Positions 2,119 through 18,343 of a DNA stretch of 64,000 bases are shown in pieces. The notes under the pieces are model-generated. The model was not told the DNA's origin. It ran no database searches and saw only the letters and a list, made by a program, of their open reading frames with translations. The first letter of the stretch is position 1; every line of letters starts with the position of its first letter. The position numbers and the translations under genes were made by a program. Origin of the DNA: a virus; IMG/VR virus record IMGVR_UViG_3300036845_000456, positions 1 to 64,000 of that record. One strand, given 5' to 3'.

Positions 2119-2307
2119 GTGTCTCTCCATCGGGATCACAGATTTTGGTTTTGGTTGATTGTCCTGATCCTTGCCGCGCTGGCAATTTTCGTCGTCGCCC
2201 TCGCGGGCATGACCTTTCATCAACAATACGAGCGCACGGCCTTTGTGCCGGCCTTCATATCCGTGATGAGCAATGGCGTTTGCTGCGTGGGATTGCGCGC
2301 ATGGTGA
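2119..2307 (+). CDS. Small membrane protein (GTG start)
   Basis: 62 aa from a GTG at 2119, preceded by CCCGAAGGATT about 10 bases upstream. One long hydrophobic segment ([20 protein letters not shown], residues 9-28) and a weaker second one near the end. No family recognised. Its end overlaps the start of the first large fibre gene by 35 bases. Confidence 0.55.
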
Positions 2308-4645
2308 TGCGCCATCAGTTCCGTTGCCAGTCGGCAACACGGTCGCCATTGCCCCGTCCGATGACAGCGTTGACTCGAACCGAGTCAGCGTCAGCGGCAA
2401 CGGCTACATCTACTCGCTCGGGCCCGGCCCGGTCGATGACGACGGCAATCCCTGGTTCTGCACGAAGCTAGTTGTTTTTACGCCGACGTCGCCGACGCAG
2501 CCGATCGTGCTGGTGCAGAGCGCGACGCTACAGATGCTCGGCGGCGTCAGCCGCACCATCAGCGTGCCGTGCATCTGCAAGTTTCACTGGGGCGGCGTCG
2601 CCTGGACTGAAGAACAGTACACCGATCTAACAAACGCCAGTGGCGGCGGTGGTGGTGGCGGAACAGCCGGACCGCCTGGACCGGTTGGGCCGCCCGGGCC
2701 CGCTGGTCCCGCCGGCCCGCAAGGCGCAACCGGACCCGCTGGGCCACAAGGGCCGAAGGGCGACACCGGCAACACAGGCGCCACGGGCTCGCAGGGACCG
2801 GCCGGCAGCACAGGCGCAGCGGGCCCTGCCGGCCCCGGCTATCAGGCGACCAGCGGGTCATCGGTACAGGTCACCAATGGCTCGAAGACGTTTGTTACAC
2901 AAGCCGGGCTCGCCTACACGGTCGGCGCTCGCGCGCGAGCCGCGTCGGGCGGCGCACCAACAAATTGGGTAGAGGGACAAGTCACCGCGTATAGCGGGAC
3001 ATCGCTGGTCATCAACGTCGATCTAACAAACGGCTCGGGCACGTTTGCTGATTGGCAGATTAACCTCGCCGGCCAACAGGGCGCGCAAGGAACGCAAGGG
3101 CCAGCCGGCAGCACCGGGGCAACAGGTCAAGGCGTGCCCACGGGCGGCACCACCGGCCAAGTCCTGACCAAGAACTCGGCCACCAATTATGATTCGAGTT
3201 GGCAAGCTCCAACAGGAGGCACTGGTACCACCACGCCAGCCGATGCGTTTACCGCAACACTAAGTGCGGATCAGACTGGCATTGCTGCATCTACTTGGAC
3301 GAAAATTAATTTCAACACGGTGGGACTAAACCAGAATGGCAAATGGGATGCGACACATCTGCGCTGGGTGCCTTCGGCTGGGCAGATTCAAATAGAAGCG
3401 CAGCTTTCTTATTCTAATATCGCTACTACTGGTCAGAATGTTTATGCTGCGATTTACAAAAATGGAGTAATGTTGAGGACTGGGGTTATTTATGACCTTC
3501 CTTCTAATAGTGGCTTTCCGGTTGTTGTTGTTGTTGATAACGCTAATGGCACTGATTACTACGAATGCTATGGGTACTGCACTGCCGTTAGCACGATAAG
3601 TTCGGTTGCTACTCTTACTTTCTTCCAAGGCTTTGCCATTGCTCCAGCCGGTCCGGCGTCTACTGTTCCTGGTCCTGCTGGTCCCGGTTATCTGGGAACC
3701 AGCACAACGAATGTGCCGATTGCGACTGGTCCCGTTACAGTCACCACGCAAGCCGGACTTGCCTATCAGGTTGGAGCAAGGACACGGTTATCCGCAGATG
3801 CATCGAACTGGATGGAAGGAGTCATCACCGCATATAGCGGGACAAGTCTAACCGTTAATGTGGACTACACGAGCGCGATGGCGGCGAGTTCGCCAAACCC
3901 GGTCATTCCTGGCTCTCTCTTTGGATTGACACTGGCGAATGATGCAACGACGCCAGCTACGGTTCTCGACATTGCTCCAGGAGGTGCCACGTCAGACGAC
4001 AATCTGACAGCGATGGTTTTGTCAGCAACTGGATTTAAGAAGAACTGCAATGCCGCATGGGTCGTCGGGTCTGGCAATGGCGCGCTCGATAGCGGTTCAG
4101 CACTCGCGAACAATACTTGGTATCATGTATTTCAAATTGAACGCGTTGATACTTACGTTGTTGATGTACTGATCTCGCAAAGTTTGACCGCACCGATACT
4201 TCCAACGAACTACACGAAGAAGCGGCGCATCGGTTCATTTCAAACAGGTGGCAGCGCAGCGATCATTCCATTTCTTCAATCTGGTGATCAGTTCCTTTTT
4301 ACGACGACACCAACAGCTTATGACACAGCACTGAATTATTCAGCCAATGTCTCTACTTTAGTCGCAGTTAACACACCACCGGGAGTGCGAACAGTCGCTT
4401 TGATACATGCAACGAACCAGACTACTGCTGGACAAAATGTATCAGTGCGAACTCCAGATATTGCTAGCCCCAGTGCTGTCTACTTCAACGTTCCTCCGGT
4501 ATCTACGACAGGAGCTTCTTACAACTACGTTGATTTGCAGGTCCTAACAAATCTTAGCTCTCAAGTCGCCGTTTATTGTGGTAGCGCCGTCACCGGAGGC
4601 TTCAAGATGGTGGCGTACGGATGGATTGACTCTCGGGGCAAGTAA
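2273..4645 (+). CDS. Collagen-like / C1q-like tail fibre 1
   Basis: 790 aa. N-terminal beta domain (residues 1-122), a glycine run, then a collagen-like G-x-y block (about 130-190, [17 protein letters not shown]). A module that also occurs in the next gene and near 39 kb follows (GYQATS...GLAYTVGAR...AYSGTSL). After a second short collagen piece comes a C1q/TNF-like domain (about 320-455, [15 protein letters not shown] ... FFQGFAI), then a repeat of the AYSGTSL module and a C-terminal beta domain ([16 protein letters not shown] ... GWIDSRGK). Such trimeric, rod-plus-lobe architecture fits a receptor-binding fibre. First of three adjacent, mutually related fibre genes; overlaps the next by one base. 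Confidence 0.8.
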
Positions 4646-5712
4646 TGCCGAGTTCTTGGAACATTGATATTGCTGGCCAACTTGGCCAGCCTGGAGGACC
4701 ACCGGGCGCTCCAGGGTCTGTTGGTCCTACCGGCCCTGTAGGTCCAGGCTATCAAGCAACCAGCACGACCAATCTACCGCTGGCGCTTGGGCCGATCACC
4801 ATCGCGACGCAAGCGGGTTTGGCCTACACGGTCGGTGCACGGGTGCGGCTGGCATCAAACAGTGCACCGGGTCAATGGATGGAGGGACCGGTCACCGCCT
4901 ACAGCGGCACATCGCTGTCGCTGAATATCGATCTGCTCAGCACCGGTATCATGGTTGCTCAGTACGTGACACTGCCGAATTATCTCGGTGGCCTCACGTT
5001 ATCGAACGACGCGACCAGTCCGAACACGGTGCTTGATATTGCGACCGGTTGTGCCACGTCTGACGACAACACGACCACGATGCCGCTGGTGGCGGCGAAC
5101 TTCACCAAGAACTGCAACGCGGCATGGGCAGTCGGATCAGGCAACGGCGCTCTTGATACCGGAAGCGCGCTAGTAGCAAACGCGTGGTATCACGTGTTTC
5201 TGATAACTCGCACGGATACCGGCGTTGTTGATGTGCTGATCTCGACCAGCGTGTCAGCACCGACCCTGCCGACAAACTACACAAAGCGGAGGCGCATCGG
5301 CACAATTGCAACTAATGCTTCTGCACAAATTATTGCATTCACTCAATTTGGTGATCAGTTCCTTTGGACGACGGTTATCAATAATTATTCCAATGTCGGC
5401 GTTTCCCAGACACAGTCGCAACTGACGTTGTCAGTGCCACCCGGGATCAAGGTGATCGCAATATTTGGTGCGTGGTTTTATCCAAATGTAAATTCCACCG
5501 TGCTGTTTCAATCTCCCGATGTAACCAGTGGGCTGGCAGTCGGTAGTAATACCAACATCTCTATATGGGGAACAGCAGCCGGGCCGTTGGTTGGCTTTGA
5601 GTGTCAGGTTCGCACCAACACGTCACAGCAGATCAACATGGTTGCTCTCTCTACCACTACGAACGGGTTATACATAAACACTAGAGGCTGGATCGATCAT
5701 CGTGGAAAGTAG
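4645..5712 (+). CDS. Collagen-like tail fibre 2
   Basis: 355 aa; ATG overlaps the previous TAA. Short collagen stretch (GQPGGPPGAPGSVGPTGPVG, about residues 14-33), then the GYQATSTTNLPLALGPITIA / AYSGTSLSLNIDL module, then a C-terminal domain (NDATSPNTVLDIATG ... TLPTNYTKRRRIG ... RGWIDHRGK) closely similar to the end of fibre 1. It lacks the C1q-like part. Probably a paralogue from duplication and domain loss, carrying the same distal lobe. Host-recognition role inferred from architecture and position. Confidence 0.75.
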   Translation: MPSSWNIDIAGQLGQPGGPPGAPGSVGPTGPVGPGYQATSTTNLPLALGPITIATQAGLAYTVGARVRLASNSAPGQWMEGPVTAYSGTSLSLNIDLLSTGIMVAQYVTLPNYLGGLTLSNDATSPNTVLDIATGCATSDDNTTTMPLVAANFTKNCNAAWAVGSGNGALDTGSALVANAWYHVFLITRTDTGVVDVLISTSVSAPTLPTNYTKRRRIGTIATNASAQIIAFTQFGDQFLWTTVINNYSNVGVSQTQSQLTLSVPPGIKVIAIFGAWFYPNVNSTVLFQSPDVTSGLAVGSNTNISIWGTAAGPLVGFECQVRTNTSQQINMVALSTTTNGLYINTRGWIDHRGK

Positions 5713-5714
5713 TC

Positions 5715-7037
5715 GTGCCAAGTGATTGGAACGTCAATCTAGCCGGTGTGCCGGGTTCAGGTCCTGCTGGTCCACCAGGGCCGCCAGGAACGCCAGGGCC
5801 ACCAGCGGATGTATTCGTTGCCACGCTCAGTGCGGATCAGACGGGCGTTGTCGCAGCCACTTGGACGAAAGTTAATTTTAATACTGCGGTCTACAATCAG
5901 AATGGCAAGTTCAACGCCAGCACTTCACGGTGGACACCGAGTGCTGGACCGGTTCAGGTAGAGGCGCAAATCGTTTTTACTGTTGCCACTACAGTTTATG
6001 CTGCCATTTATAAAAATGGTGTTGCTTTAAGACAGATGCCCATTGGTAGCCAATCACGCATCACGGTTACGGACAATGCGAACGGCACAGATTATTATGA
6101 AGCTTGGATATATACCACCGTTGCTGGTGCGGTATCTTCAAATACCGTTAACAGTTTCTTCCAAGGCTTTGCCATCGCCCCGGCGGGTCCGCAAGGTCCG
6201 GTCGGGCCCGTCGCAGAAGCGCCGACTGATGGTCAGCAATACGCGCGGCAGAACGCAGCTTGGAGTGTCGTCGGCGCGGCGGCGGCTGTTCCCAGTTCGG
6301 GGAAACTCACCTACGTCAATGCCACGACGCTGAAGTTTGCGCCGTACAACGGCGACTTGATCAAGATCAACGGCGTCATCTATCAAATCCCGGCAGCGGG
6401 AATCGCCGGACTGAGCACGGCGGGTGTGTTCCTCAACGGCGTGGCCGGGCAGAATCTTGCTGGCGCCACGCTGTACTACGTCTATTGCTTCAACAACGGC
6501 GGCACGCTGACGGCCGACTTCTCGACCACGGGTCACGCGACCAGCACGACAACCGGGAATGTCGGGATCGAAATCAAAAGCGGCGACAACACACGCTCGC
6601 TAATTGGTTTGATCTATGTATCTGGTAGTCCTGTCAATTTTTATGATCAAAATACAGCGCGTTGGGTGCGCTCTTGGTTTAATCCGACGACGGCTGCATT
6701 GAGTATCGCCTCGGCAGGATCACTCAATGCGACTTCAGGTTGGGTTGCGTCTACAGGAGTAGTTCAATGGGTTCAATTTGCCGGGGAACTTACTTTTCTG
6801 CGATTTACCGGAGCCGTATATTTTCCAAGTGCGACTAATATGTATCAGACAATGTATGTTGATGGGGTTGGTGCTGGTGGAACAGGTACTTGTTATTCAA
6901 ATGCGACTTGGGCCTCATTTGCAATGGAAGTGCAAGGCTCATATGCCGAGGGATTTCATTCTTCTCAGGCAATGTATCAAGCGACTGTTGCGACAAGTAA
7001 CATGGCTGGCAGTTTGAACGGGTCTGTGAGTCGCTAG
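5715..7037 (+). CDS. Collagen-like / C1q-like tail fibre 3 (GTG start)
   Basis: 440 aa from GTG at 5715. The N-terminal MPSDWNVNLAG is related to the start of fibre 2 ([11 protein letters not shown]). Then a short collagen block (GPAGPPGPPGTPGPP) and the C1q-like domain shared with fibre 1 ([20 protein letters not shown]). A middle module (LIKINGVIYQIPAAGIAGLS ... [13 protein letters not shown]) recurs in the fibre gene ending at 40167. The distal end is unique. A hairpin follows at 7061-7100. Likely an alternative or co-assembled fibre tip. Confidence 0.75.
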   Translation: MPSDWNVNLAGVPGSGPAGPPGPPGTPGPPADVFVATLSADQTGVVAATWTKVNFNTAVYNQNGKFNASTSRWTPSAGPVQVEAQIVFTVATTVYAAIYKNGVALRQMPIGSQSRITVTDNANGTDYYEAWIYTTVAGAVSSNTVNSFFQGFAIAPAGPQGPVGPVAEAPTDGQQYARQNAAWSVVGAAAAVPSSGKLTYVNATTLKFAPYNGDLIKINGVIYQIPAAGIAGLSTAGVFLNGVAGQNLAGATLYYVYCFNNGGTLTADFSTTGHATSTTTGNVGIEIKSGDNTRSLIGLIYVSGSPVNFYDQNTARWVRSWFNPTTAALSIASAGSLNATSGWVASTGVVQWVQFAGELTFLRFTGAVYFPSATNMYQTMYVDGVGAGGTGTCYSNATWASFAMEVQGSYAEGFHSSQAMYQATVATSNMAGSLNGSVSR

Positions 7038-7782: not shown

Positions 7783-10146
7783 ATGAGCGACCGCCGCGCC
7801 AAGTGGCTCGAACTGAAGGCGCGCGCGCTGGCGGCCATCAATAAGTTCGACCCGGACGAGCCGCGCGATCCGAGCGGCAAGTGGACGGACGGCGGCGGTG
7901 ATGATGGCGATGGGGCGGCGGAAGATGCCGCTGCTGTTCCCGGATTGCCGGACACGATCAAGATTCACGATCCTGGGCTCAACGCAGCAATCGAGCGCGG
8001 CGTATGGGATATCACCGCCAAGCCGCGCGCTTACAGCAACGACAAGCCGGGTGATGCATACGATCTAACAGTTCGCGCAAAGCAAACAGCCGACACGCGG
8101 ACCTACAAGCGGCGTGCCGATGATAAAGTTGAGCGTCTCTACAATCCCAAGCTTGCGGACTTGGTTGTTGAGGACAAGGGCCAACCGTATGAATGGACGC
8201 GTGCGAAACTGAAGCCGGAATTTGAAAAAGATATTGTTCCGCTTGCGGATAAGGATGTGATCTATCGCGGAATGTCCGGTGAGGAATACGAGGCAATCCA
8301 AAAAACCGGAAAGGTCACGTCGCTCGGCAACTACAATCTGGAAGGTCAGGAGGGTCTAACATACTGGACTACTGATACATCGACGGCGGAAGCTTATGCC
8401 AATGGTTTTGCGCCGTGGTCATTCAAACCAACATTTGAGAAACCCGCGTACATAGTTGCCGCGAAACGGCCGGAGTCGAAGGACGTCAGCAATATTCAAG
8501 GCACGGGCGAAAATGAAGTAGGTGTCTCACGTCCGATCAAAAAATCAGAGATTGTCGCCGTCTGGCGCGGCGACGCTTACGACAACACGCCGGGCCAAGT
8601 TGATCTTGTTCGCATGGGTTATAGCGGGGACGACTATCGAACCGGATCAGCCAGCCACACGAGCACATCAGTTGCATGGTCAAAAGTGCCAGAGACGGAG
8701 CGCAAGGGTTTCGACCCGGACGAGCCGCGCGACGACGCTGGCAAGTGGACCGCTGGCGGCGGCGATGGTGGCGGCGGCGACGACAGCAAACCGGCACAAG
8801 GCGAGTTGTTCCCCGAACTGCCGCCGCTGCCGCCGGGCAAGGGCAAGAACAAGCTTGACGACTTCGCCAAGGATCAAGTGACGCTGGCGAGCGATGTGCG
8901 CAATGACAAGGAGAAGGCCGACAAGTTTCTGGAGCACTGGAACGAAAACGTTCGCGAAGCGCCCGCCGAATTCAAAAAAGAATTCCTCGGCGGAATGCCC
9001 GCGACCATGACGATCAAAAGCAACGACAATGGCGATGTATGGACGCTGACCGGCAAGTTGCAGGATGCCGATGGCGCCTCGATCGGCGAATACACGCGCA
9101 CGATTGATTTCGCTGAAAACCGAGCAGAGAGCGACTACTTCAAGCTCAACAAAACCGGTGGCGGCCTCGGCAAACAGATGCTCGCAGCCAACGTCGCCAT
9201 GTATCAAAAGCTCGGCCTCAGTGAAGTGGAAGTGCATGCCAACATCGACGTCGGCGGCTACGCCTGGGCTAAATACGGCTACGTGCCGACCGACGAGAGT
9301 TGGCGCAATCTCAGCGGCAGCATCAACGACAAGATCGATGAACTCGCGGGCGGCGGCGGCGGTTACGAGCCGAGTAGCTGGGAGGAAATGAGCGAGGATC
9401 AGCAAGACAGTGTTTTCAACGCCTGGGCGCGCGCCAGCGAAGACGAGTTTTACGAGAGCGAAGTCGAGAATTGGCGCGAGAGTGGTGGTGATCTCGCGCA
9501 AGCCAAGCAAAACTTGGCGGATACGTTTCTAGCATCGAGCACGTGGGCGCGTAATGCGCTGGAAGGGCACACGATCACGGTCGGTGAGGGCGATAATGAA
9601 AAAGCCGTCAAGGTCGCGTCACTGATCTCGGTCGATACGTTGTTGGAGAATACGACGGTTGATTTCAAAGACCGACGCGGCGACGGCAACGAAGACCCGG
9701 ACATTACGATTGACGATCAGACAACGTCGGAATTGACCGACGATCAGCGCGAGCAAGTTGAAAGCATCTTAGTCGAAGGCTTCAATAAGCAAGCGGAAAG
9801 CGATGCCTCCGACGTTGAGCCGCCGCCACACTTTCACGACAACATTCGCGATTCACAAAGCGAATACTGGTCGAGCATGCGCGACCGCGACAAGTTTCGC
9901 TGGGCCAGCGACAATGGCGAGCTACCTGAAGAAACAAGCGGCAGCGGCGAGATCGATGAAGACGCCGCGCAAGAGCTACGCGAATTAGCCGACGATTCCG
10001 ATCCCAAGGCGCTATGGGCAATTGCCGACAGCGAGCACGGCAAGGATGTGTTGTTGAATAGTGATTGGGTCGGTGTTCTCGATTTACATGATTCAGAAAC
10101 GATGGCGCGGTTCAATGCCTACGTCAACAAAAAGCCCAAAGCATAA
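7783..10146 (+). CDS. Putative virion-associated ADP-ribosyltransferase-like / GNAT-like multidomain protein
   Basis: 787 aa. The motif FDPDEPRDxxGKWTxGGG occurs twice (residues 22-39 and 310-327), each opening a domain. The first domain (about 150-275) has an ART-like pattern: VIYRGMS with R162, then YWTTDTSTAEAYANG around 195-208 and a possible ENEVGVSR catalytic-Glu region near 243-250. The second domain (about 360-515) has a GNAT-like acetyl-CoA loop (TGGGLGKQML, 458-467) and GGYAWAKYGYVPT (491-503). The C-terminal 270 residues are acidic and helical with no known domain. This dipeptide-like linker motif is common in phage proteins coded beside head genes. Position just before the protease-capsid gene suggests packaging in the head and injection; both enzymatic roles are inference. 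Confidence 0.6.
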   Translation: MSDRRAKWLELKARALAAINKFDPDEPRDPSGKWTDGGGDDGDGAAEDAAAVPGLPDTIKIHDPGLNAAIERGVWDITAKPRAYSNDKPGDAYDLTVRAKQTADTRTYKRRADDKVERLYNPKLADLVVEDKGQPYEWTRAKLKPEFEKDIVPLADKDVIYRGMSGEEYEAIQKTGKVTSLGNYNLEGQEGLTYWTTDTSTAEAYANGFAPWSFKPTFEKPAYIVAAKRPESKDVSNIQGTGENEVGVSRPIKKSEIVAVWRGDAYDNTPGQVDLVRMGYSGDDYRTGSASHTSTSVAWSKVPETERKGFDPDEPRDDAGKWTAGGGDGGGGDDSKPAQGELFPELPPLPPGKGKNKLDDFAKDQVTLASDVRNDKEKADKFLEHWNENVREAPAEFKKEFLGGMPATMTIKSNDNGDVWTLTGKLQDADGASIGEYTRTIDFAENRAESDYFKLNKTGGGLGKQMLAANVAMYQKLGLSEVEVHANIDVGGYAWAKYGYVPTDESWRNLSGSINDKIDELAGGGGGYEPSSWEEMSEDQQDSVFNAWARASEDEFYESEVENWRESGGDLAQAKQNLADTFLASSTWARNALEGHTITVGEGDNEKAVKVASLISVDTLLENTTVDFKDRRGDGNEDPDITIDDQTTSELTDDQREQVESILVEGFNKQAESDASDVEPPPHFHDNIRDSQSEYWSSMRDRDKFRWASDNGELPEETSGSGEIDEDAAQELRELADDSDPKALWAIADSEHGKDVLLNSDWVGVLDLHDSETMARFNAYVNKKPKA

Positions 10147-10408
10147 AGTCGGCAAAGAATTCTTCGTGCTGAAAAATAATCGGCGCGAAGATGCAGATTT
10201 GCATAACGCCATTCTGGCGGACGGCGACGACGCGGCAGCTAAGGAAGTTAGCGATGCCGTAGCGCGGCGTCTGAAAGTAAAACGCGAAGCCAAACGCAAG
10301 CTGGCCAAGTCGCTGTCAGATTGGACCCCGGTCGAGAACGCGCTGCGGCAAGGCGAATGGAAAGACACCAAAGCCCGAGCGCTGCGCGCGCGGCGGCGGA
10401 AATCTTAG
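10115..10408 (+). CDS. Small basic hypothetical protein
   Basis: 97 aa from ATG 10115, overlapping the preceding stop by 32 bases. Lys/Arg-rich helices (ARRLKVKREAKRKLAKS; ALRARRRKS at the end) and an acidic centre (ILADGDDAAAKEVSD). No recognised domain. Directly followed by the AGGAGG site of the protease-capsid gene, so it belongs to the head operon; a nucleic-acid-binding or internal head protein is possible. Confidence 0.6.
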   Translation: MPTSTKSPKHKVGKEFFVLKNNRREDADLHNAILADGDDAAAKEVSDAVARRLKVKREAKRKLAKSLSDWTPVENALRQGEWKDTKARALRARRRKS

Positions 10409-10417
10409 GAGGCAGAC

Positions 10418-13087
10418 ATGCCTATCAAGCCGGGTAAAGACGAATCGCAAACTGATTGGATGGCGCGATGCGTGCCAGACATGAAGGGCGACAACGGCGG
10501 CACTAAGAGGCCGCAGGAACAAGCAGTCGCTGCTTGCCTGACCATGTGGCGCGACGCCAAGGGCGGCAAGGAACCGGCCGATAAGGATATCGCGGCGCTG
10601 ATTCCGGGCTGGATCAGCAATCTGGTGCGGGCCGGTGTGCTCAAGGCCGCCGACGTCGAGTACGCCGATCCCGGCTATCGCGCTGATGGCGGGAAGCGTT
10701 ACCGGCTCGACAGCGAAGATCGTATCCGCGCGGCTTGGCATGCGATCAACAAGTCGGCTGATGCCTATACGCCGGAACAGGCGCGGCGCATCAAGGCGCG
10801 CGTCGTCGCTGCATGGAAAGACAAGATCGATAAAGCCGGGCCGCCGAGCGCGGACGACAAGGCGTCGATGGACACGTTGCGCGGCGAAGTCGTGCTGGCG
10901 CTCAAGTTCGATTGTCCTGATCCTGATGATGACGAAGCGCACGATGATTTCATCGATCGCTGCACAGACGAAGTCATGGGCGACGATCCCGATCGAGACG
11001 AAGACGAAGCCACGCAAGCCTGCCAGCTTCGCTGGGATGAGCAATCCGATCGCGGCGTCGGCGACATCGTGCATAAGACGCATGCGACACCGGCCACCGG
11101 CATGGAATTCATCTTGTCGGACGCGAGCGCGGACCGGTTCGGCGACATCATCGACGTCGCCGGCTGGGATATCAGTAATTTCGTCAAGAACCCGGTCGCG
11201 CTTTTCAACCACGACAAGGGCTTCGTCATCGGCAAATGGGAAAACTTGCGCATCGGCGACGATTTGCGCGGCCACTTGGTGCTGGCGCCGAAGGGCACCA
11301 GCCCGCGTATTGATGAAATCAGGCGACTAGTTGAGGCCGACATTCTGCGCGCCACCAGCGTCGGTTTCCGGCCGGTCGAGCACACGCCGATCAACGCCAA
11401 AGACCCATGGAGCGGCACCCACTATCTCAAACATGAGTTGGTCGAATGCTCCGTGGTCGCCGTGCCCGCCAACGTCAACGCGTTGGCCGTGGCCAAATCC
11501 CTGAACGTAAGCCCTGCAACTGTCCGTCTCGTGTTTGGCGAGCATGCCGACAACAACACGAAGCGACGCAGTTTCAACCGTCCGCCCGGTGGCGAGCATG
11601 CCGAGAAAAAGCCGGACAGCGTGACGCCTAAGCCCACTGGCGAGCATGCCGAAATCCATGAGAGCAAAACCAGGGGGAGTCCCATGTTGCTTTCGAAACG
11701 CATTACGGACGGCGAGAAGCGAGTCCTCGTGTTGCAGGATCAACTCGACGCGCATCTGGCGTCCATGGACGACGACAATCCGACTGACGAGCAAATGCTG
11801 GTGACCGAGGACCTGACCGCCAAGATCGAAATGGCGCAACGGCATCTCAACAGCATGAAGGCGATCGAGGCGAAGAACGGCTCGGGCGCCGAAGATGTTG
11901 GCGAGATCAGCCGCCGGGGCAACGGCACCGGCAACGGCAGCACCGCCGTCACCAAGGCACCGCAAGGAATCGTGCTGCGGCAGAAAAAGCCGGAACCGCT
12001 CGATTACTTCTGGCGTGCGGCATTGGTGAAGTGCAAGGCGCGTGCGGACGGTCAGTCGATTGACGACACCCGCCGTAAGATTTACGGCGACGACGAAGCC
12101 ACACGCGCGGTGTGCGATATCGTGTTGAAGGCGGCGAGTGCTCCAGCGCTCACGACAGTGAGCGGGTGGGCGGCGGAACTTGTTCAGCAAATTTACGCTG
12201 ACTTCATGCAAGTGCTACTCCCGCTTTCGGTCTACCCCAAGCTGGCGGCGGCCGGAATGTCGCTGACGTTCGGAAATGCTGGGCGCATCATCATTCCAAC
12301 TCGTAATCTGACTCCGTCACTTGCGGGTTCGTTTGTTGGTGAGGGAATGCCTATTCCTGTTCGCCAGGGCGCCTTCGCGTCTCAAGTTGTTGTTCCTAAA
12401 AAAGTTGCCGTGATCACGACCTGGACCAAGGAACTCGATGAGCATTCCATTCCCGCGATCGAAGGTCTGTTGCGGCAAGCTGTGCTTGAAGATACGGCGA
12501 TCGCGATCGATGCGGTGTTGTTGGACAACAATCCGGCAACAGCAATTCGGCCGAATGGTCTGCGTGTCTATCAGGCCGGGCTGACAGCGACAGTGGGCGG
12601 CGGCTTCAATGCTCTGGTCGGTGATCTCAAGTTGTTGCAGGGCTCGCTGCTGACGCTGACCCAAGGCAATGTGCGCAAGCCGGTAATCATGCTCAATCCG
12701 CAACAGGTGCTGAGCATCAGCTTGATCCAGCCACCGGCTGCGGCGACCGAACTGTTCCCGTTCCGCGCCGAAGTGGAAGCGGGCCGGCTCGGCCGCGCGA
12801 CCCTGATCGAGTCGTCAACCGTGCCGCTCGGCATGGCCATCGCGGTGGACGCAGCCGACTTCGTGTCGGTTGGTTCAGAAGGTCCGCGCCTCGAAATTTC
12901 GGACCAAGCCACCTTGCACATGGAAGACACGACGCCGCAAGACATCGTGGGCGGATCGCCGGGAGTGGCGGCCACGCCGGTCAAATCGATGTGGCAAACA
13001 GATTCGCTCGCCCTTCGGTTGATCATGCTCACCAACTGGATCATGCGGCGTCCAGTTGTTGCTTGGATGACCGGCGTCACGTGGTAG
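10418..13087 (+). CDS. Prohead protease - HK97-type major capsid protein fusion
   Basis: 889 aa, with AGGAGG 6 bases before ATG. Residues about 60-145 resemble the helical domain often fused to phage proteases (YRLDSEDRIRAAWHAINKSA). Residues 225-355 are an HK97-type prohead protease: H265 in LFNHDKG, S314 in ATSVGF, and HELVECSVVAVPAN at 339-352. A linker with three GEHA(D/E) repeats follows (about 373-410). From about residue 423 a coiled-coil delta-like region (ITDGEKRVLVLQDQLDAHLA) leads into an HK97-fold capsid domain ending TDSLALRLIMLTNWIMRRP. Normally these are two genes; here one frame runs through. A strong internal start at 11684 may release the capsid part. The protease would cleave the scaffold and mature the capsid. 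Confidence 0.88.
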   Translation: MPIKPGKDESQTDWMARCVPDMKGDNGGTKRPQEQAVAACLTMWRDAKGGKEPADKDIAALIPGWISNLVRAGVLKAADVEYADPGYRADGGKRYRLDSEDRIRAAWHAINKSADAYTPEQARRIKARVVAAWKDKIDKAGPPSADDKASMDTLRGEVVLALKFDCPDPDDDEAHDDFIDRCTDEVMGDDPDRDEDEATQACQLRWDEQSDRGVGDIVHKTHATPATGMEFILSDASADRFGDIIDVAGWDISNFVKNPVALFNHDKGFVIGKWENLRIGDDLRGHLVLAPKGTSPRIDEIRRLVEADILRATSVGFRPVEHTPINAKDPWSGTHYLKHELVECSVVAVPANVNALAVAKSLNVSPATVRLVFGEHADNNTKRRSFNRPPGGEHAEKKPDSVTPKPTGEHAEIHESKTRGSPMLLSKRITDGEKRVLVLQDQLDAHLASMDDDNPTDEQMLVTEDLTAKIEMAQRHLNSMKAIEAKNGSGAEDVGEISRRGNGTGNGSTAVTKAPQGIVLRQKKPEPLDYFWRAALVKCKARADGQSIDDTRRKIYGDDEATRAVCDIVLKAASAPALTTVSGWAAELVQQIYADFMQVLLPLSVYPKLAAAGMSLTFGNAGRIIIPTRNLTPSLAGSFVGEGMPIPVRQGAFASQVVVPKKVAVITTWTKELDEHSIPAIEGLLRQAVLEDTAIAIDAVLLDNNPATAIRPNGLRVYQAGLTATVGGGFNALVGDLKLLQGSLLTLTQGNVRKPVIMLNPQQVLSISLIQPPAAATELFPFRAEVEAGRLGRATLIESSTVPLGMAIAVDAADFVSVGSEGPRLEISDQATLHMEDTTPQDIVGGSPGVAATPVKSMWQTDSLALRLIMLTNWIMRRPVVAWMTGVTW
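11672..11686 (+). promoter_or_regulatory. Internal ribosome binding site for a separate capsid protein
   Basis: AGGGGGAG lies 4 bases before the in-frame ATG at 11684 (residue 423 of the fusion), exactly at the junction between the GEHA-repeat linker and the coiled-coil/capsid part. Initiation here would give a free 467-aa capsid protein (11684-13087) in addition to the full fusion. Confidence 0.6.
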
Positions 13088-13682: not shown

Positions 13683-15128
13683 ATGCGTCTACCTGCGACC
13701 ATCCGTAATCTGGCGTCGGCCGTCCTCCGGGCGGCCGAAGGCCAGTATCGTCCCGGCCCGTGGTATTTGCCGGTCACGCACGGATGGCTGCCGGCTGACG
13801 TCGGCAATTCGATTAACTGGTGGCAGAACGGGCACACGCCACAGCTACTTGGCGCCAACCTCGCCATCATCGAGGCGTGCGTGTCGGCGTATGCACAAAC
13901 AGTGGCGATGTGTCCAGGGAACCATTGGCACGGCAACAACAAAGGCGGGCGCGACCGCGTCACCAACTCGGCGCTGTGCCGTATTCTGCGGCGGCCGAAC
14001 GACTATCAGACGATCAGCGATTTGTTGATGAATGTAACGCGCCAGCTTTACATGGAAGGCAACGCGTATTTGTTGTGCATGCGCAATGCCCGCTACGAGA
14101 TCAGCGAATTGCACATGATGGATAATCGCTATTGCCGCGCGTTGATCGACGGCGACGGCGAAGTACATTACACGCTTGGCGGCAATTGGATCGTGCAGAA
14201 CAGATACGGGCCGCTGACGACCGTGCCCGCGCGCGATGTGCTGCATATCAAGCTACACGTTGACCAGCTTCGCAATCCGCTGCGCGGCGAAAGCCCGCTC
14301 GCGTCCGCTTTTCTCGACGCCATGACCGCGCAATCAATCCTGGCGCAGCAATATCAGTTCTATCAAAACCAAGCCAAGCCCGGCTTCGTGCTTTCGACCG
14401 ATCTATTGTTGGACAAAGATCAAGTCAGCGCTTTGCGGGATCGCTGGATGGAGCAGACCAGCGGGCAAAACGTCGGTGGCACGCCGATCCTGACCGGCGG
14501 GTTGAAGCCGCAAGGCTTGCCGATGGCCACGTTCCGCGACGCGCAATTGGCGGAAGTGCTGAAGATGAACAACGAAGGCATCGCCATGGCTTTCCGCGTG
14601 CCGCCGCAAATTATCGGCATTGTCGAAAAGGGTTCATTCCGCTCGACCGAAGCACTGATGCAGGGGTGGGTGGCGAGCGGCCTGGGGTTCTGTTTGAACC
14701 ACATCGAGGAAGCGTTCGGCATGGCGTTCGGCTTGGATGGACAGCCAGATGATTATTTGGAGTTTGACACCAAGGCGCTGTTGCGCTCGGCGTTCAAGGA
14801 TCGCATCGACGGTTTGGTCAAAGCGGTGCAGGGCGGTGTCATGTCGCCCAACGAAGCCAGAAATGAGGAAGATTTAGACTCGGTCAAATTCGGGGACGAG
14901 CCGAGAGTCCAGCAGCAAGTCGTTCCCTTGTCCGCAGCGGCAGCCATCCCGAGCACGGGACCATCAACAAAAATTCCAGCATCGCCGCCTAGTCCCTCGC
15001 AACCCTCGCAGTCGCCTTCTTCTCCGGCGGCGCCAAAAATAGATGAGGCAGGACGCGATGCATTCCGACGACGAGTACACAACAAGTCACTCCAAATCGA
15101 ACGGGAGCGACAGCGGCAATTACAATGA
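13683..15128 (+). CDS. Portal protein (HK97-type family)
   Basis: 481 aa. Recognisable portal features are [10 protein letters not shown] (about 123-132), the [10 protein letters not shown] strand (179-188), a region rich in Q/Y/F helices ([18 protein letters not shown]) and [20 protein letters not shown] (about 306-325). Family members form the dodecameric DNA channel at the capsid vertex. The C-terminal 80 residues are Pro/Ser-rich, then basic. Starts 6 bases after the preceding stop. Its 3' end overlaps the collagen-like gene by 86 bases in another frame. Confidence 0.88.
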
Positions 15129-16602
15129 TGTGTTGGCGGATGAACTGGGCGACATCGTTGCTCAGTATCGGATGCAATGGGCGCGCGAGAAAGCAGTAAT
15201 CGAGGCGCAAAGCCGCGAGGCCGTTGCCACGCTGCGCGCTGAATTGCTGCAACTGCGCTATTCCTGGGAAGCCGCCTTCCATCAACGCCTCGCCCAACTC
15301 AAGGACGGCGAGCGCGGCGCCCCCGGAATCGATGGCACGCAAGGTCCGCAAGGGCTCCGGGGTGAGCCCGGCGAGCCCGGCGCCCCCGGAGAGCGGGGCG
15401 AGCCCGGTGAGCCCGGACGCAACGGACTCGATGGCCTAGCCGGCGCGATCGGCCTCGCCGGACCGAGCGGCGAGCGGGGCGAGCCCGGGGCCGTCGGCGA
15501 GCGCGGCTTGCAAGGGCCGCAAGGGCTGCCCGGTATCACAGGCGCCCCCGGCATCGCAGGCGAGCGGGGCGCCCCCGGTTTGCAAGGCGAGCGCGGGGAA
15601 CCGGGCGAGCCAGGGCGCAATGGCGCGGACGGCGCCATCGGGCCAGCCGGACTCATGGGGGTTCAAGGTTTGCCGGGCGAGCGAGGTTTGCCCGGGGAGC
15701 GCGGGGAAGCAGGCGAGCCCGGGCGCAATGGCGCCGACGGTATCGCCGGACCGCCCGGGCCGATGGGCCCGCCGGGGCCCACAGGGGCCGCTGGGGAGGC
15801 TATTCGGGGCGAGGTAGGCGAGCCGGGCAGGAACGGCGCGGAAGGCCGCCCGGGGCCGCCTGGGCCACGCGGCGAGCCCGGTTTGGCCGGACCGAAGGGC
15901 GAAACGGTCAAGGGCGACCAGGGCGAGCCCGGAAGAAACGGGCTCGATGGCGCCCAAGGGCCGATCGGGCTGCAAGGACCGCCGGGGCCGATCGGGGAGC
16001 GAGGCGCCCCCGGTCAGAACGGCCGTGACGGCTTGGCCGGGCAAGTCGGCCCGGTCGGCATGCAGGGCCCGCAAGGCGAGCGCGGGGAGCAAGGTCCGCG
16101 CGGCAGCGTCGGGAAAGTCCTGCCGTGGTCGGATCGGATTTTCTACGCCGGGGAACTGGTTACGCACGGCGGCGCGTGCTGGCAGGCGATCAACGACACC
16201 GCGAAAGAACCGACCGCCGTCGGCAAAGACTGGCAAGTCATTGCTGCATCTGGCGCCCCCGGCGCGTCGTTCACGGTGAGAGGCACCTATGACCCGCAGC
16301 AAGCGTACAAAACGCTCGATGTTGTGGTGGTCGATCACGGATGGTTCGTGGCTCGACGCGACAATCCCGGTGCCTGTCCTGGCGGCGGTTGGCAGTCAGG
16401 GCCCGTCGGTAAGCGCGGCGAAAAAGGCATCCCGGGCGAACGCGGCGCCAAAGGCGAGCCGGGCAAAACGGCGGCGCACTGGGTCGGCGTCAAGCTCGAC
16501 GGGTTCGACGTCGTCACGGTGATGTCGGACGGCACCTTCGGCCCGCGCTTTTCACTTGCACCGATGTTCGAGAAGTTCGAGGCCGAGCTACGGAGTCGGT
16601 GA
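15043..16602 (+). CDS. Head-module collagen-like protein with carbohydrate-binding-like modules
   Basis: 519 aa (ATG at 15058 is an alternative with AGGA 4 bases upstream). Residues 30-85 form a helical coiled coil. Residues about 88-365 are nearly uninterrupted G-x-y triplets ([13 protein letters not shown] repeated). Two short modules follow: [20 protein letters not shown] (about 367) and [20 protein letters not shown] (about 408), resembling CBM5/12-like Trp-containing sheets. A short second collagen piece and a C-terminal domain end the protein. Located between portal and connector, it is probably a capsid- or neck-attached fibre rather than a tail fibre; this is inferred from position. 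A ribosome reading both frames shares 86 bases with the portal gene. Confidence 0.75.
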
Positions 16603-17252
16603 TGCAACAACTTCTGAACGTGCTGACCCCGGCGGCGTCGCAGGACCTGATCAGTCTTGCCGACATGAAGATGAAGCTCGGCATTCCTAGCACCGACACG
16701 TCGAAGGATTTTCTGCTGCAAGAGTTGATCAGCAACACGTCGGAACTGATCGCCACGTTGTGCAATCGCGTGTTTGCTTACGAGGAAGTCAACGAGACGT
16801 TCTACCAACTCGATGACGGCTACAGCCGGCGGCTCTATCTTTCGCGGTGGCCGGTCAAGACCGCCGACATCACGGTGTTCACACAAGTCGATAGCGACAC
16901 TGACCTGTTGCCGACGCTCAATAGTGGTTGGTTCCTCGAAGAAAAAACCGGCACGCTCTACGGCCAGCCCGATCTTGGCTACTGGTATGGGACCGTCAGT
17001 GTCACTTATTCGGGCGGTTACAATCTGCCGACCGAAACACCGAACTCATTGTTGTTCGCATTCGAAGCACTGGTGCGTGAACAGTACATGAGTTGGATAC
17101 GCGCGCCGTCGTCGTTCGGGGTGAGGCAGATACGACATAAGGAATCAGCCATCGGTTACTACGGGCCAAACCTTTTCCCCACGACCGGCCTGCCCGCGAC
17201 GTGGACAGCCGTGCAAACCGTGCTCAACAAGTTCATGCGCCACTGGGTCTGA
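16602..17252 (+). CDS. Head-tail connector (gp6-like) protein
   Basis: 216 aa, ATG overlapping the previous TGA. The N-terminal pattern (LISLADMKMKLGIPSTDTSK followed by helices with LLQELISNTSELIATLCNRV) is typical of gp6-like connectors: short Asp-containing loop then paired helices. The middle beta region (LYLSRWPVKTADITVF; TVSVTYSGGYNLP) and the C-terminal helix (LLFAFEALVREQY) also fit. Family members form the ring below the portal that closes the head and accepts the tail. Confidence 0.78.
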   Translation: MQQLLNVLTPAASQDLISLADMKMKLGIPSTDTSKDFLLQELISNTSELIATLCNRVFAYEEVNETFYQLDDGYSRRLYLSRWPVKTADITVFTQVDSDTDLLPTLNSGWFLEEKTGTLYGQPDLGYWYGTVSVTYSGGYNLPTETPNSLLFAFEALVREQYMSWIRAPSSFGVRQIRHKESAIGYYGPNLFPTTGLPATWTAVQTVLNKFMRHWV

Positions 17253-17254
17253 TC

Positions 17255-18343
17255 ATGAAACATCAACAAGTCACCGCCGAGAGTGCCATTACGCTTAAGC
17301 GTCCAGCCGAATTCGTCTGGCGTGCGGCGGCGGCCACGCTGCGCGGCTTCGTCGGCGGCATGTCGCCGACAGTGATGGCGCGCAACATGTACGGCGACGA
17401 TCCGGTGACGCCGCTGGTGCTGCGCGGCGCCACCACGCAAGCCGTCACCAGCGTTCCGGCTTGGGCTGGGGCAGTGGCTTTCCAAAGCGTGTCGCGGGCC
17501 ATCGAGGAAGTCGTCGCCTTGTCGGCGATCGGCGCGGTGCTGCGCGCGGGCGCGCTCAATGTCGATCTTGGCCGCAACGCCTCAGTGCGCGTGCCCGGCC
17601 GCGCCACGTCGCCGGCTGACGCCGGGCAGTGGGTCCAAGAAGGCCATCCGATTCCGGCGCGCGCCCTCCACCTGCTGGGCGGTCCGGTGCTGTCGCCGAC
17701 CAAGCTGGCGGTGTTGGTCACCATGACGCGCGAGATGACAGAGGCGAGCAATATCGAGGATGTGGTGCGCATGTTGTTGACGGAGGCGGCCAGCATCGCC
17801 CTCGATGCCGCGCTGTTCTCGACCAATGCGGCGACGGCGGCCATGCCTGCGGGGATTCTGCTCGGCATCACGGCGTTGCCGGCGACCACCGGCACCGGGC
17901 TCGGCTTCGATGCCTGCGGCCAGGACCTTGGTAATCTCGTGCAAGACATCGCCTCGCGCGGCGGCGGCGCGCATGCGTACTTCATCGCCGCGCCGCATCA
18001 GTCAACCGCCATCCGGTTCTGGGCCGGTGGCCAATTCGGCCGCACCGTGGACGGCGACGTTCTGCCGGTCGCCGCGTCCGCCGGTCTGGCGGAAGGCACC
18101 GTGCTGGCGATCGAGCCCGCCAGCCTCGCGCTCACCTTGAACGATCCGCAGTTTTCGGTCGCCAACGTGGCGACCGTGCATCAGGAAGACACCACGCCGC
18201 TCGACATCGTCAGCGGTGGCACCGTGGCGACGCCGGTCAAATCGATGTTCCAGACCGACGCGCTGGCGCTGCGCATGACCTTGACAGCGAATTGGGGCAT
18301 GCGCGCGCCGCACGTGTCCTACATCACCGGAGTCGGCTGGTGA
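17255..18343 (+). CDS. Second HK97-type capsid protein paralogue (possible vertex protein)
   Basis: 362 aa, ATG two bases after the connector stop. It matches the capsid half of the 10418 gene over its length. Shared landmarks include the start of the E-loop/P-domain part (QWVQEGHPIP versus GSFVGEGMPIP), the helix with the LTEAASIALDAAL core, HQEDTTPLDIV versus HMEDTTPQDIV, and the end SMFQTDALALRMTLTANWGM versus SMWQTDSLALRLIMLTNWIM. It lacks the protease, linker and most of the coiled coil. Two capsid paralogues in one genome suggest specialised roles such as hexamer and vertex subunits, as in T4; this is inference. Confidence 0.82.
   Translation: MKHQQVTAESAITLKRPAEFVWRAAAATLRGFVGGMSPTVMARNMYGDDPVTPLVLRGATTQAVTSVPAWAGAVAFQSVSRAIEEVVALSAIGAVLRAGALNVDLGRNASVRVPGRATSPADAGQWVQEGHPIPARALHLLGGPVLSPTKLAVLVTMTREMTEASNIEDVVRMLLTEAASIALDAALFSTNAATAAMPAGILLGITALPATTGTGLGFDACGQDLGNLVQDIASRGGGAHAYFIAAPHQSTAIRFWAGGQFGRTVDGDVLPVAASAGLAEGTVLAIEPASLALTLNDPQFSVANVATVHQEDTTPLDIVSGGTVATPVKSMFQTDALALRMTLTANWGMRAPHVSYITGVGW

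What the first reader, a model, noticed from the sequence alone, without database searches (positions are those of the whole stretch)
7783..10146. ART-like plus GNAT-like polyprotein with a repeated linker motif beside the head genes
Two candidate enzymatic domains, each opened by FDPDEPRDxxGKWTxGGG, plus a third unknown domain, are coded immediately upstream of the protease-capsid gene. This resembles polyvalent phage proteins that ride in the capsid and act in the host at infection start, by ADP-ribosylating or acetylating host targets. The ART R/E pair is only partly visible.
Basis: partly seen in the sequence, partly recalled or inferred. Interest (0 to 1): 0.6.

Follow-up and report, generated by a model that had tools for sequence, protein, structure and literature searches.

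The report
Tagged two-enzyme phage head effector protein
A virus of bacteria carries, beside the genes for its head, one long protein made of two enzyme-like modules, each preceded by the same short tag; the same modules and tag recur fused to head proteins in many other phages, which suggests that the protein travels in the virus particle and alters the host cell when infection starts.

Summary
Window 7783-10146 encodes a 787-aa protein with two near-identical 18-aa motifs. AlphaFold and Foldseek support both fold calls. Module 1 is ADP-ribosyltransferase-like (closest: CC0527/DUF952), with R162 and E245 invariant in 34 aligned family members. Module 2 is GNAT-like (all 50 listed PDB hits are GNATs). 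The 'third domain' is a helical insertion inside the GNAT fold. Neither family matched Pfam, NCBIfam or PHROGs. 198 viral stretches encode the GNAT module; in 58 of 80 loci head genes (portal, MuF, protease-capsid) are fused or near. The same ART is fused to portal and MuF elsewhere. An unnoticed small partner gene (10115-10408) follows or is fused to 62 of 86 GNAT ORFs and is absent from 165 other loci. The motif is widespread: its HPRDxxG[KR]FT form gave at least 120 hits against 2 for a scrambled control; of 20 random carriers 14 had a Pfam domain, 9 of these MuF, portal, toxin, ART or anti-defence. Best reading: a virion-packaged, injected two-effector protein. Packaging, catalysis and targets are untested. 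New variant of a known kind.

The parts
7783..10146 (+). 787-aa two-module protein (P0001)
   Evidence: dN/dS 0.23 against L003
7846..7899 (+). tag/linker copy 1, FDPDEPRDPSGKWTDGGG (residues 22-39), near the N terminus
7942..8709 (+). ART-like module (residues 54-309): N-terminal beta-rich part, then ART-like core with R162, T197, E245
   Evidence: AlphaFold pLDDT 86.5; Foldseek 2o0q prob 1.00; conservation
8266..8268 (+). codon of R162 (YRGMS motif)
   Evidence: invariant in 34-row alignment A5
8515..8517 (+). codon of E245 (NEVGV motif), proposed catalytic Glu
   Evidence: invariant in 34-row alignment A5
8710..8763 (+). tag/linker copy 2, FDPDEPRDDAGKWTAGGG (residues 310-327), between the modules
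   Evidence: a tag lies within 130 aa before the GNAT match in 44 of 73 relatives
8872..9333 (+). GNAT core, first part (residues 364-517), with acetyl-CoA-loop-like TGGGLG (458-463) and invariant DVGGYAW (489-495)
   Evidence: AlphaFold pLDDT 93.8; listed top 50 PDB hits all GNAT; alignment
   Evidence: secondary structure of the model; short-form relatives such as L082, L086, L093 lack it
9997..10143 (+). C-terminal part of the GNAT module (DPKALWAIAD...LLNSDWVGVLDLHD...RFNAYV) with the last strand
10115..10408 (+). small partner gene (97 aa, ...GKEFFVLKNNRREDADLHNAILADGDDAAAKEVS...), overlapping the 3' end of the effector gene by 32 nt; start codon inferred
   Evidence: homologue directly downstream of 60 of 86 unique GNAT ORFs, fused in 2 more, none in 165 loci without a GNAT match
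10418..13087 (+). prohead protease (S78)-major capsid fusion gene (context)
   Evidence: Pfam, PHROGs, NCBIfam
13683..15128 (+). portal gene (context)
   Evidence: Pfam PF04860, E 3.7e-67

Best explanation
The gene encodes a head-packaged, injected two-effector protein. Shown by computation: two modules with ART-like and GNAT-like folds, each preceded by a copy of a short tag; tag and both modules recur as fusions to portal and MuF proteins in many phages; a small partner gene follows the GNAT module. Inferred: the protein is made with the late genes, is taken into the prohead through the tag and/or through the GNAT module with its partner, leaves the head with the DNA, and in the new host the ART module transfers ADP-ribose from NAD+ (R162, T197, E245) while the GNAT module acetylates a target, so that transcription, translation or a defence protein is altered at the start of infection. 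The repeat arose because modules that each carry their own N-terminal tag were fused head to tail.
For: ART: model pLDDT 86.5; best PDB match CC0527/DUF952, prob 1.00, TM 0.61 by target, weaker MTX toxin and DarT, phage RNA 2'-phosphotransferase; R162 in 56 of 59 and E245 in 55 of 56 aligned segments that cover them, some of these being short secondary hits, both invariant in 34. GNAT: model pLDDT 93.8; 50 of 50 listed hits GNAT; weak Pfam GNAT matches in 8 of 46. Head link: 58 of 80 GNAT loci have S78-capsid, portal or MuF near or fused, with portal fusions (L017, L027, L037, L070, L079, L083) and MuF fusions (L043, L082, L086); the same ART fused to portal in L098-L101 and to MuF in L117 and L120. 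Tag: at least 120 against 2 hits for a scrambled pattern; positions not in the pattern conserved (W/F at -5 in 116 of 127, E at -3 in 105 of 127); carriers include MuF, portal, Zeta toxin, ARTs, PBECR, Acb1-like, SAM lyase, InPase, while tag-free neighbours are mostly ordinary structural genes. Precedents: T4 Alt, polyvalent proteins, MuF toxins (PMC5512222, PMC5576092, PMC9503650).
Against: No virion proteomics or biochemistry. Foldseek E-values against the PDB do not reach 0.001 (1.9e-3 for ART, 5.9e-3 for GNAT). No profile similarity of the ART to an ART-PolyVal or a PF03496 sequence. The usual GNAT general-acid Tyr position holds Trp in all 46 aligned members, and the acetyl-CoA loop is degenerate in many close relatives.
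Confidence: 0.6

Rival explanations
1. The GNAT-like module is not an enzyme at work in the host but a docking module inside the head: it sits on portal or MuF, or binds the capsid interior, and together with the small partner domain recruits tagged effectors. Only the ART is a true effector here.
For: The module is the constant part, with variable N-terminal parts of up to about 1300 aa; the partner is nearly obligate and in about 12 loci is itself fused ahead of a tag and further sequence, in one case a Zeta toxin; Trp replaces the usual general-acid Tyr in all 46.
Against: Portal and MuF fusions keep the module although they are already in the head; the acetyl-CoA loop is canonical (Q/R-G-x-G) in distant MuF-fused members; DVGGYAW is nearly invariant, as an active site would be.
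Confidence: 0.3
2. Toxin-immunity pair: the effector protein harms the cell and the small downstream gene protects the producing cell, as proposed for MuF toxins.
For: Small overlapping gene directly downstream, median 8 nt; MuF toxins have small downstream immunity ORFs (PMC5576092).
Against: The partner tracks the GNAT, not the variable effectors; it is fused ahead of other tagged modules in about 12 loci and to the GNAT ORF itself in 2, unlike an immunity protein.
Confidence: 0.12
3. The protein acts during assembly on phage head proteins and is not injected.
For: Late-gene position next to protease-capsid; P1 DarA-Hdf shows that head-internal proteins can serve capsid assembly as well (PMC12810830).
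Against: The exchangeable set of Zeta toxin, ART, Acb1-like, nuclease and SAM lyase domains on the same tag points to host targets.
Confidence: 0.1

Closest known systems
Phage polyvalent proteins (Iyer et al. 2017, PMC5512222)
   Same: Several unrelated effector domains in one polypeptide; ART and GNAT as neighbours; virion-gene context; related domains fused to MuF and portal
   Different: The ART there is H-Y-D (Tox-ART-HYD2), here R-T-E and without profile similarity; the tag before each module, the split GNAT and the partner gene were not found in the parts of that paper read here
MuF polymorphic toxins (Jamet et al. 2017, PMC5576092)
   Same: Head protein fused to variable effectors; small gene downstream
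   Different: No MuF domain in the window protein; the constant GNAT module is C-terminal and the effector N-terminal; the small gene tracks the constant part
T4 Alt (head-packaged ART)
   Same: Proposed packaging in the head and ART activity on host proteins
   Different: Other ART family, no GNAT, no such tag; packaging here not shown
DUF952 / CC0527 (PDB 2o0q)
   Same: Closest solved fold to the ART core (prob 1.00, TM 0.61 by target)
   Different: 19% identity, 114 aa, lacks the N-terminal beta part
Large polyvalent protein of Planktothrix phage Pag-Yong1 (OL906435)
   Same: Contains the same ART family, about 40% identity
   Different: 2772 aa with other domains and no GNAT module of this family

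Membership tests
Phage polyvalent proteins | two or more unrelated effector domains in one polypeptide | tested here: met
   two different folds in one ORF
Phage polyvalent proteins | coded among virion genes | tested here: met
   next to S78-capsid and portal genes
Phage polyvalent proteins | packaged in the virion and injected | not testable with these tools
   only indirect: portal and MuF fusions of the same modules
ART-PolyVal (PF18760, H-Y-D ART) | match to the family profile and H-Y-D residues | tested here: not met
   no Pfam match; hhalign prob 0.4% against an ART-PolyVal member; residues are R-T-E
ADP-ribosyltransferase superfamily | ART fold | tested here: met
   AlphaFold 86.5; DUF952 prob 1.00, weaker DarT, MTX, phage KptA-like; moderate strength, best PDB E 1.9e-3
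ADP-ribosyltransferase superfamily, R-S-E type | conserved R, S/T and E | tested here: met
   R162 and E245 invariant in 34; S/T at 196-197 common but not universal
ADP-ribosyltransferase superfamily | NAD+-dependent transfer | not testable with these tools
   needs an assay
GNAT superfamily | GNAT fold | tested here: met
   pLDDT 93.8; 50 of 50 listed PDB hits GNAT, prob 0.95-1.00
GNAT superfamily | acetyl-CoA loop R/Q-x-x-G-x-G/A | tested here: inconclusive
   window TGGGLG; first position Q or R in 23 of 46, fourth G in 19 of 46; canonical in distant members
GNAT superfamily | general-acid Tyr before the G-F of the last motif (used by many, not all, GNATs) | tested here: not met
   Trp in 46 of 46; position inferred by eye
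GNAT superfamily | Pfam GNAT model above cut-off | tested here: not met
   8 of 46 members weak, best E 0.0026; none for the window protein
MuF polymorphic toxins | N-terminal MuF domain | tested here: not met
   absent in the window protein; present in relatives such as L086

The most novel reading that the evidence does not exclude
The short element [WF]-[DN]-[EP]-x-x-[HE/Q]-P-R-D-x-x-G-[KR]-[FW]-T-x-G-G-G is a general virion-targeting tag (or prohead-protease site) that marks phage effectors for packaging, as MIX or RIX motifs mark type VI effectors, and the split GNAT with its small partner is a dedicated two-part docking or effector unit of tailed-phage heads.
Probability: 0.3. Interest if true: 0.85.

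Novelty: new variant of a known kind. Interest (0 to 1): 0.6.

Why it matters
Injected head proteins are the first tools a phage uses against its host, but they are hard to recognise because their enzymes vary quickly. A shared short tag and a constant GNAT-partner pair would give a sequence handle for finding such effectors, many of them unannotated, and would make the question of how cargo enters a phage head directly testable. The ART and GNAT families met here have no usable model in Pfam, NCBIfam or PHROGs as searched.

Tried and rejected
Pfam, NCBIfam, PHROGs and PDB sequence searches with the whole protein gave nothing useful. A plasmid search with the ART gave nothing. The L018 ORF that joins the GNAT module to the S78-capsid region was not counted as a fusion, because the stretch between may be only an open frame. 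Membership in ART-PolyVal was considered and rejected. An independent third enzyme domain was rejected. No paper in the held library contains the tag or DVGGYAW strings searched. A DUF6294 hint at residues 410-440 (E 0.05) was treated as chance. The partner gene has no match in the phage records searched.

Full report
The object. The window is part of an 80,967-base virus record. ORF 7783-10146 (+) codes for 787 aa. It carries FDPDEPRDPSGKWTDGGG at residues 22-39 and FDPDEPRDDAGKWTAGGG at 310-327, identical at 15 of 18 aa and 43 of 54 nt, with unrelated flanks. The motif occurs nowhere else in the window. Pfam, NCBIfam, PHROGs and the PDB sequences give no usable hit. A prohead protease-capsid gene (10418-13087) and a portal gene (13683-15128) follow.

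Module 1. tblastn found residues 120-314 at about 40% identity in the large polyvalent protein of Planktothrix phage Pag-Yong1 and two records with the same match. Two collection scans gave 6 and then 45 viral loci. Across the aligned domains the pattern is Y-R162-G-M, [YF]-[WFY]-[STG]-[TS], Y-A-x-x-F-[AT]-P and E245; R162 and E245 are invariant in the 34-row alignment. The AlphaFold model has mean pLDDT 86.5. Its best PDB match is CC0527/DUF952 (2o0q, prob 1.00, TM 0.61 by target), followed at much lower probability by the mosquitocidal ART toxin and DarT; in the viral library a putative RNA 2'-phosphotransferase (KptA type, an ART-superfamily member) is among the hits. That DUF952 is grouped with ARTs in Pfam is from memory, not tested. 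With the R-T-E residues this supports an ART-superfamily fold at moderate strength. There is no profile similarity to an ART-PolyVal or a PF03496 sequence, so this is a separate family.

Module 2. Residues 409-504 resemble the N-terminal part of MuF-type 'minor head' proteins of Alteromonas phage R7M and Pseudomonas phage AIIMS-Plu-RaNi. An alignment-based scan found 198 viral stretches; the best 80 were kept. The AlphaFold model of residues 359-787 has pLDDT 93.8, and all 50 listed PDB matches are GNAT acetyltransferases. Eight of 46 members match Pfam GNAT models weakly. The strand at 762-767 comes after a helical insertion of about 220 residues that short-form relatives lack; reading it as the last GNAT strand is inference from order and from the short forms. 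The acetyl-CoA loop is TGGGLG here and Q/R-G-x-G in distant members; the position of the usual general-acid Tyr is Trp in all 46. Catalysis is plausible but not established.

Architecture. In relatives the GNAT module is constant and what precedes it varies from about 90 to about 1300 aa: Zeta toxin (L029, L030), this ART (window, L062), other segments, and whole head proteins. Portal proteins are fused ahead of it in L017, L027, L037, L039, L041, L046, L070, L079 and L083, MuF-type proteins in L017, L043, L073, L082 and L086; 58 of 80 loci have S78-capsid, portal or MuF fused or near, several of the rest being contig ends. The ART is likewise fused to portal in L098-L101 and L104 and to MuF in L117 and L120. 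In bacterial genomes the module lies in long form in Bradyrhizobium sp. SRL28, in a prophage-like setting, and in MuF-type proteins of Flavobacterium, Dyadobacter, a Helicobacteraceae genome and Glycomyces. The Bradyrhizobium case hints at an alphaproteobacterial host for the window virus (inference).

Partner gene. A small domain, E-[FL]-[FHY]-Y...D-A-x-L-H-x-x-I-L, coded at 10115-10408 and overlapping the 3' end of the effector gene, follows directly after 60 of 86 unique GNAT ORFs (median 8 nt from GNAT stop to domain start) and is fused in 2 more. None was found in 165 loci without a GNAT match. In about 12 loci it is the N-terminal part of a longer protein with the tag and further sequence, for example a Zeta toxin in L040.

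The tag. In 73 relatives 63 tags were counted against 0.1 in shuffles; in 44 a tag lies within 130 aa before the GNAT match. Positions that the pattern did not specify are conserved: W or F at -5 in 116 of 127, E at -3 in 105 of 127, glycines after it. About half lie within 60 aa of the start of the open frame. Pfam on 20 carriers, chosen at random among those of 350-1100 aa with the upstream aromatic residue, gave a domain in 14: MuF (3), Mu portal (2), Zeta toxin, two kinds of ART, 2H/Acb1-like with topoisomerase IB, and in the other five NUDIX, topoisomerase IB or a kinase; inorganic pyrophosphatase, SAM lyase and PBECR nuclease occur as second domains of MuF or portal carriers. Two of the 20 look like copies of one protein. 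Ten tag-free ORFs from the same loci were capsid, terminase, protease-like, baseplate or unknown, with one NUDIX. The samples are small. No description of the tag was found in the held library.

Mechanism. The simplest reading is that modules with their own N-terminal tag were fused head to tail, and that the protein is a head-packaged, injected ART-GNAT effector. Fold, residues, tag and genomic context are shown by computation; packaging, ejection, activity and targets are inferred from precedents: T4 Alt, polyvalent proteins and MuF toxins (PMC5512222, PMC5576092, PMC9503650), P1 DarA-Hdf inside the head (PMC12810830), T4 internal proteins against restriction (PMC12373910). The main rival is that the GNAT-like module and its partner are a docking unit rather than an enzyme.

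Novelty. The concept is known; the ART family, the split GNAT family with its partner, and the tag appear undescribed in the libraries searched. Hence 'new variant of a known kind', interest 0.6, with a higher ceiling if the tag proves to be a packaging signal.

Noticed in passing
window 10418-13087 and 17201-18343: Two HK97-type capsid genes in one virus: a protease-capsid fusion and a separate capsid paralogue (both PHROG 617).
   Followed up: no
window 2273-7037 and 15043-16602: Collagen-like Gly-X-Y repeats in several ORFs, one of them right after the portal gene.
   Followed up: no
L120:2965-5979 (+): MuF-like protein with the ART inserted and what looks by eye like a Hint/intein segment (CICPGTVIEG...) in its cysteine motif.
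   Followed up: no
L016, L027, L037, L033, L043, L057, L138 (7367-9022): A second recurring module (GGRRLDAFDTxLPxLYxxxGFxAVARLxF...DVVFMV), GNAT-like by eye, is joined by the same tag.
   Followed up: no
L074, L243, L138, L009, L011: A DUF7178-type module (YPNFR...YAALSPxxDWDxNV...) recurs with the tag (Pfam in L074 and L243, by eye in the others), twice in one protein with this ART.
   Followed up: partly
L008:5712-6224 (+): A second, ordinary R-S-E ART (PF03496) stands directly after this ART family in one protein with three tags.
   Followed up: partly
L040:6190-8076 and L015:1754-3559, partner domain: Sub-threshold Mrr_N match (E about 2e-4 and 4e-4) overlapping the partner domain.
   Followed up: no
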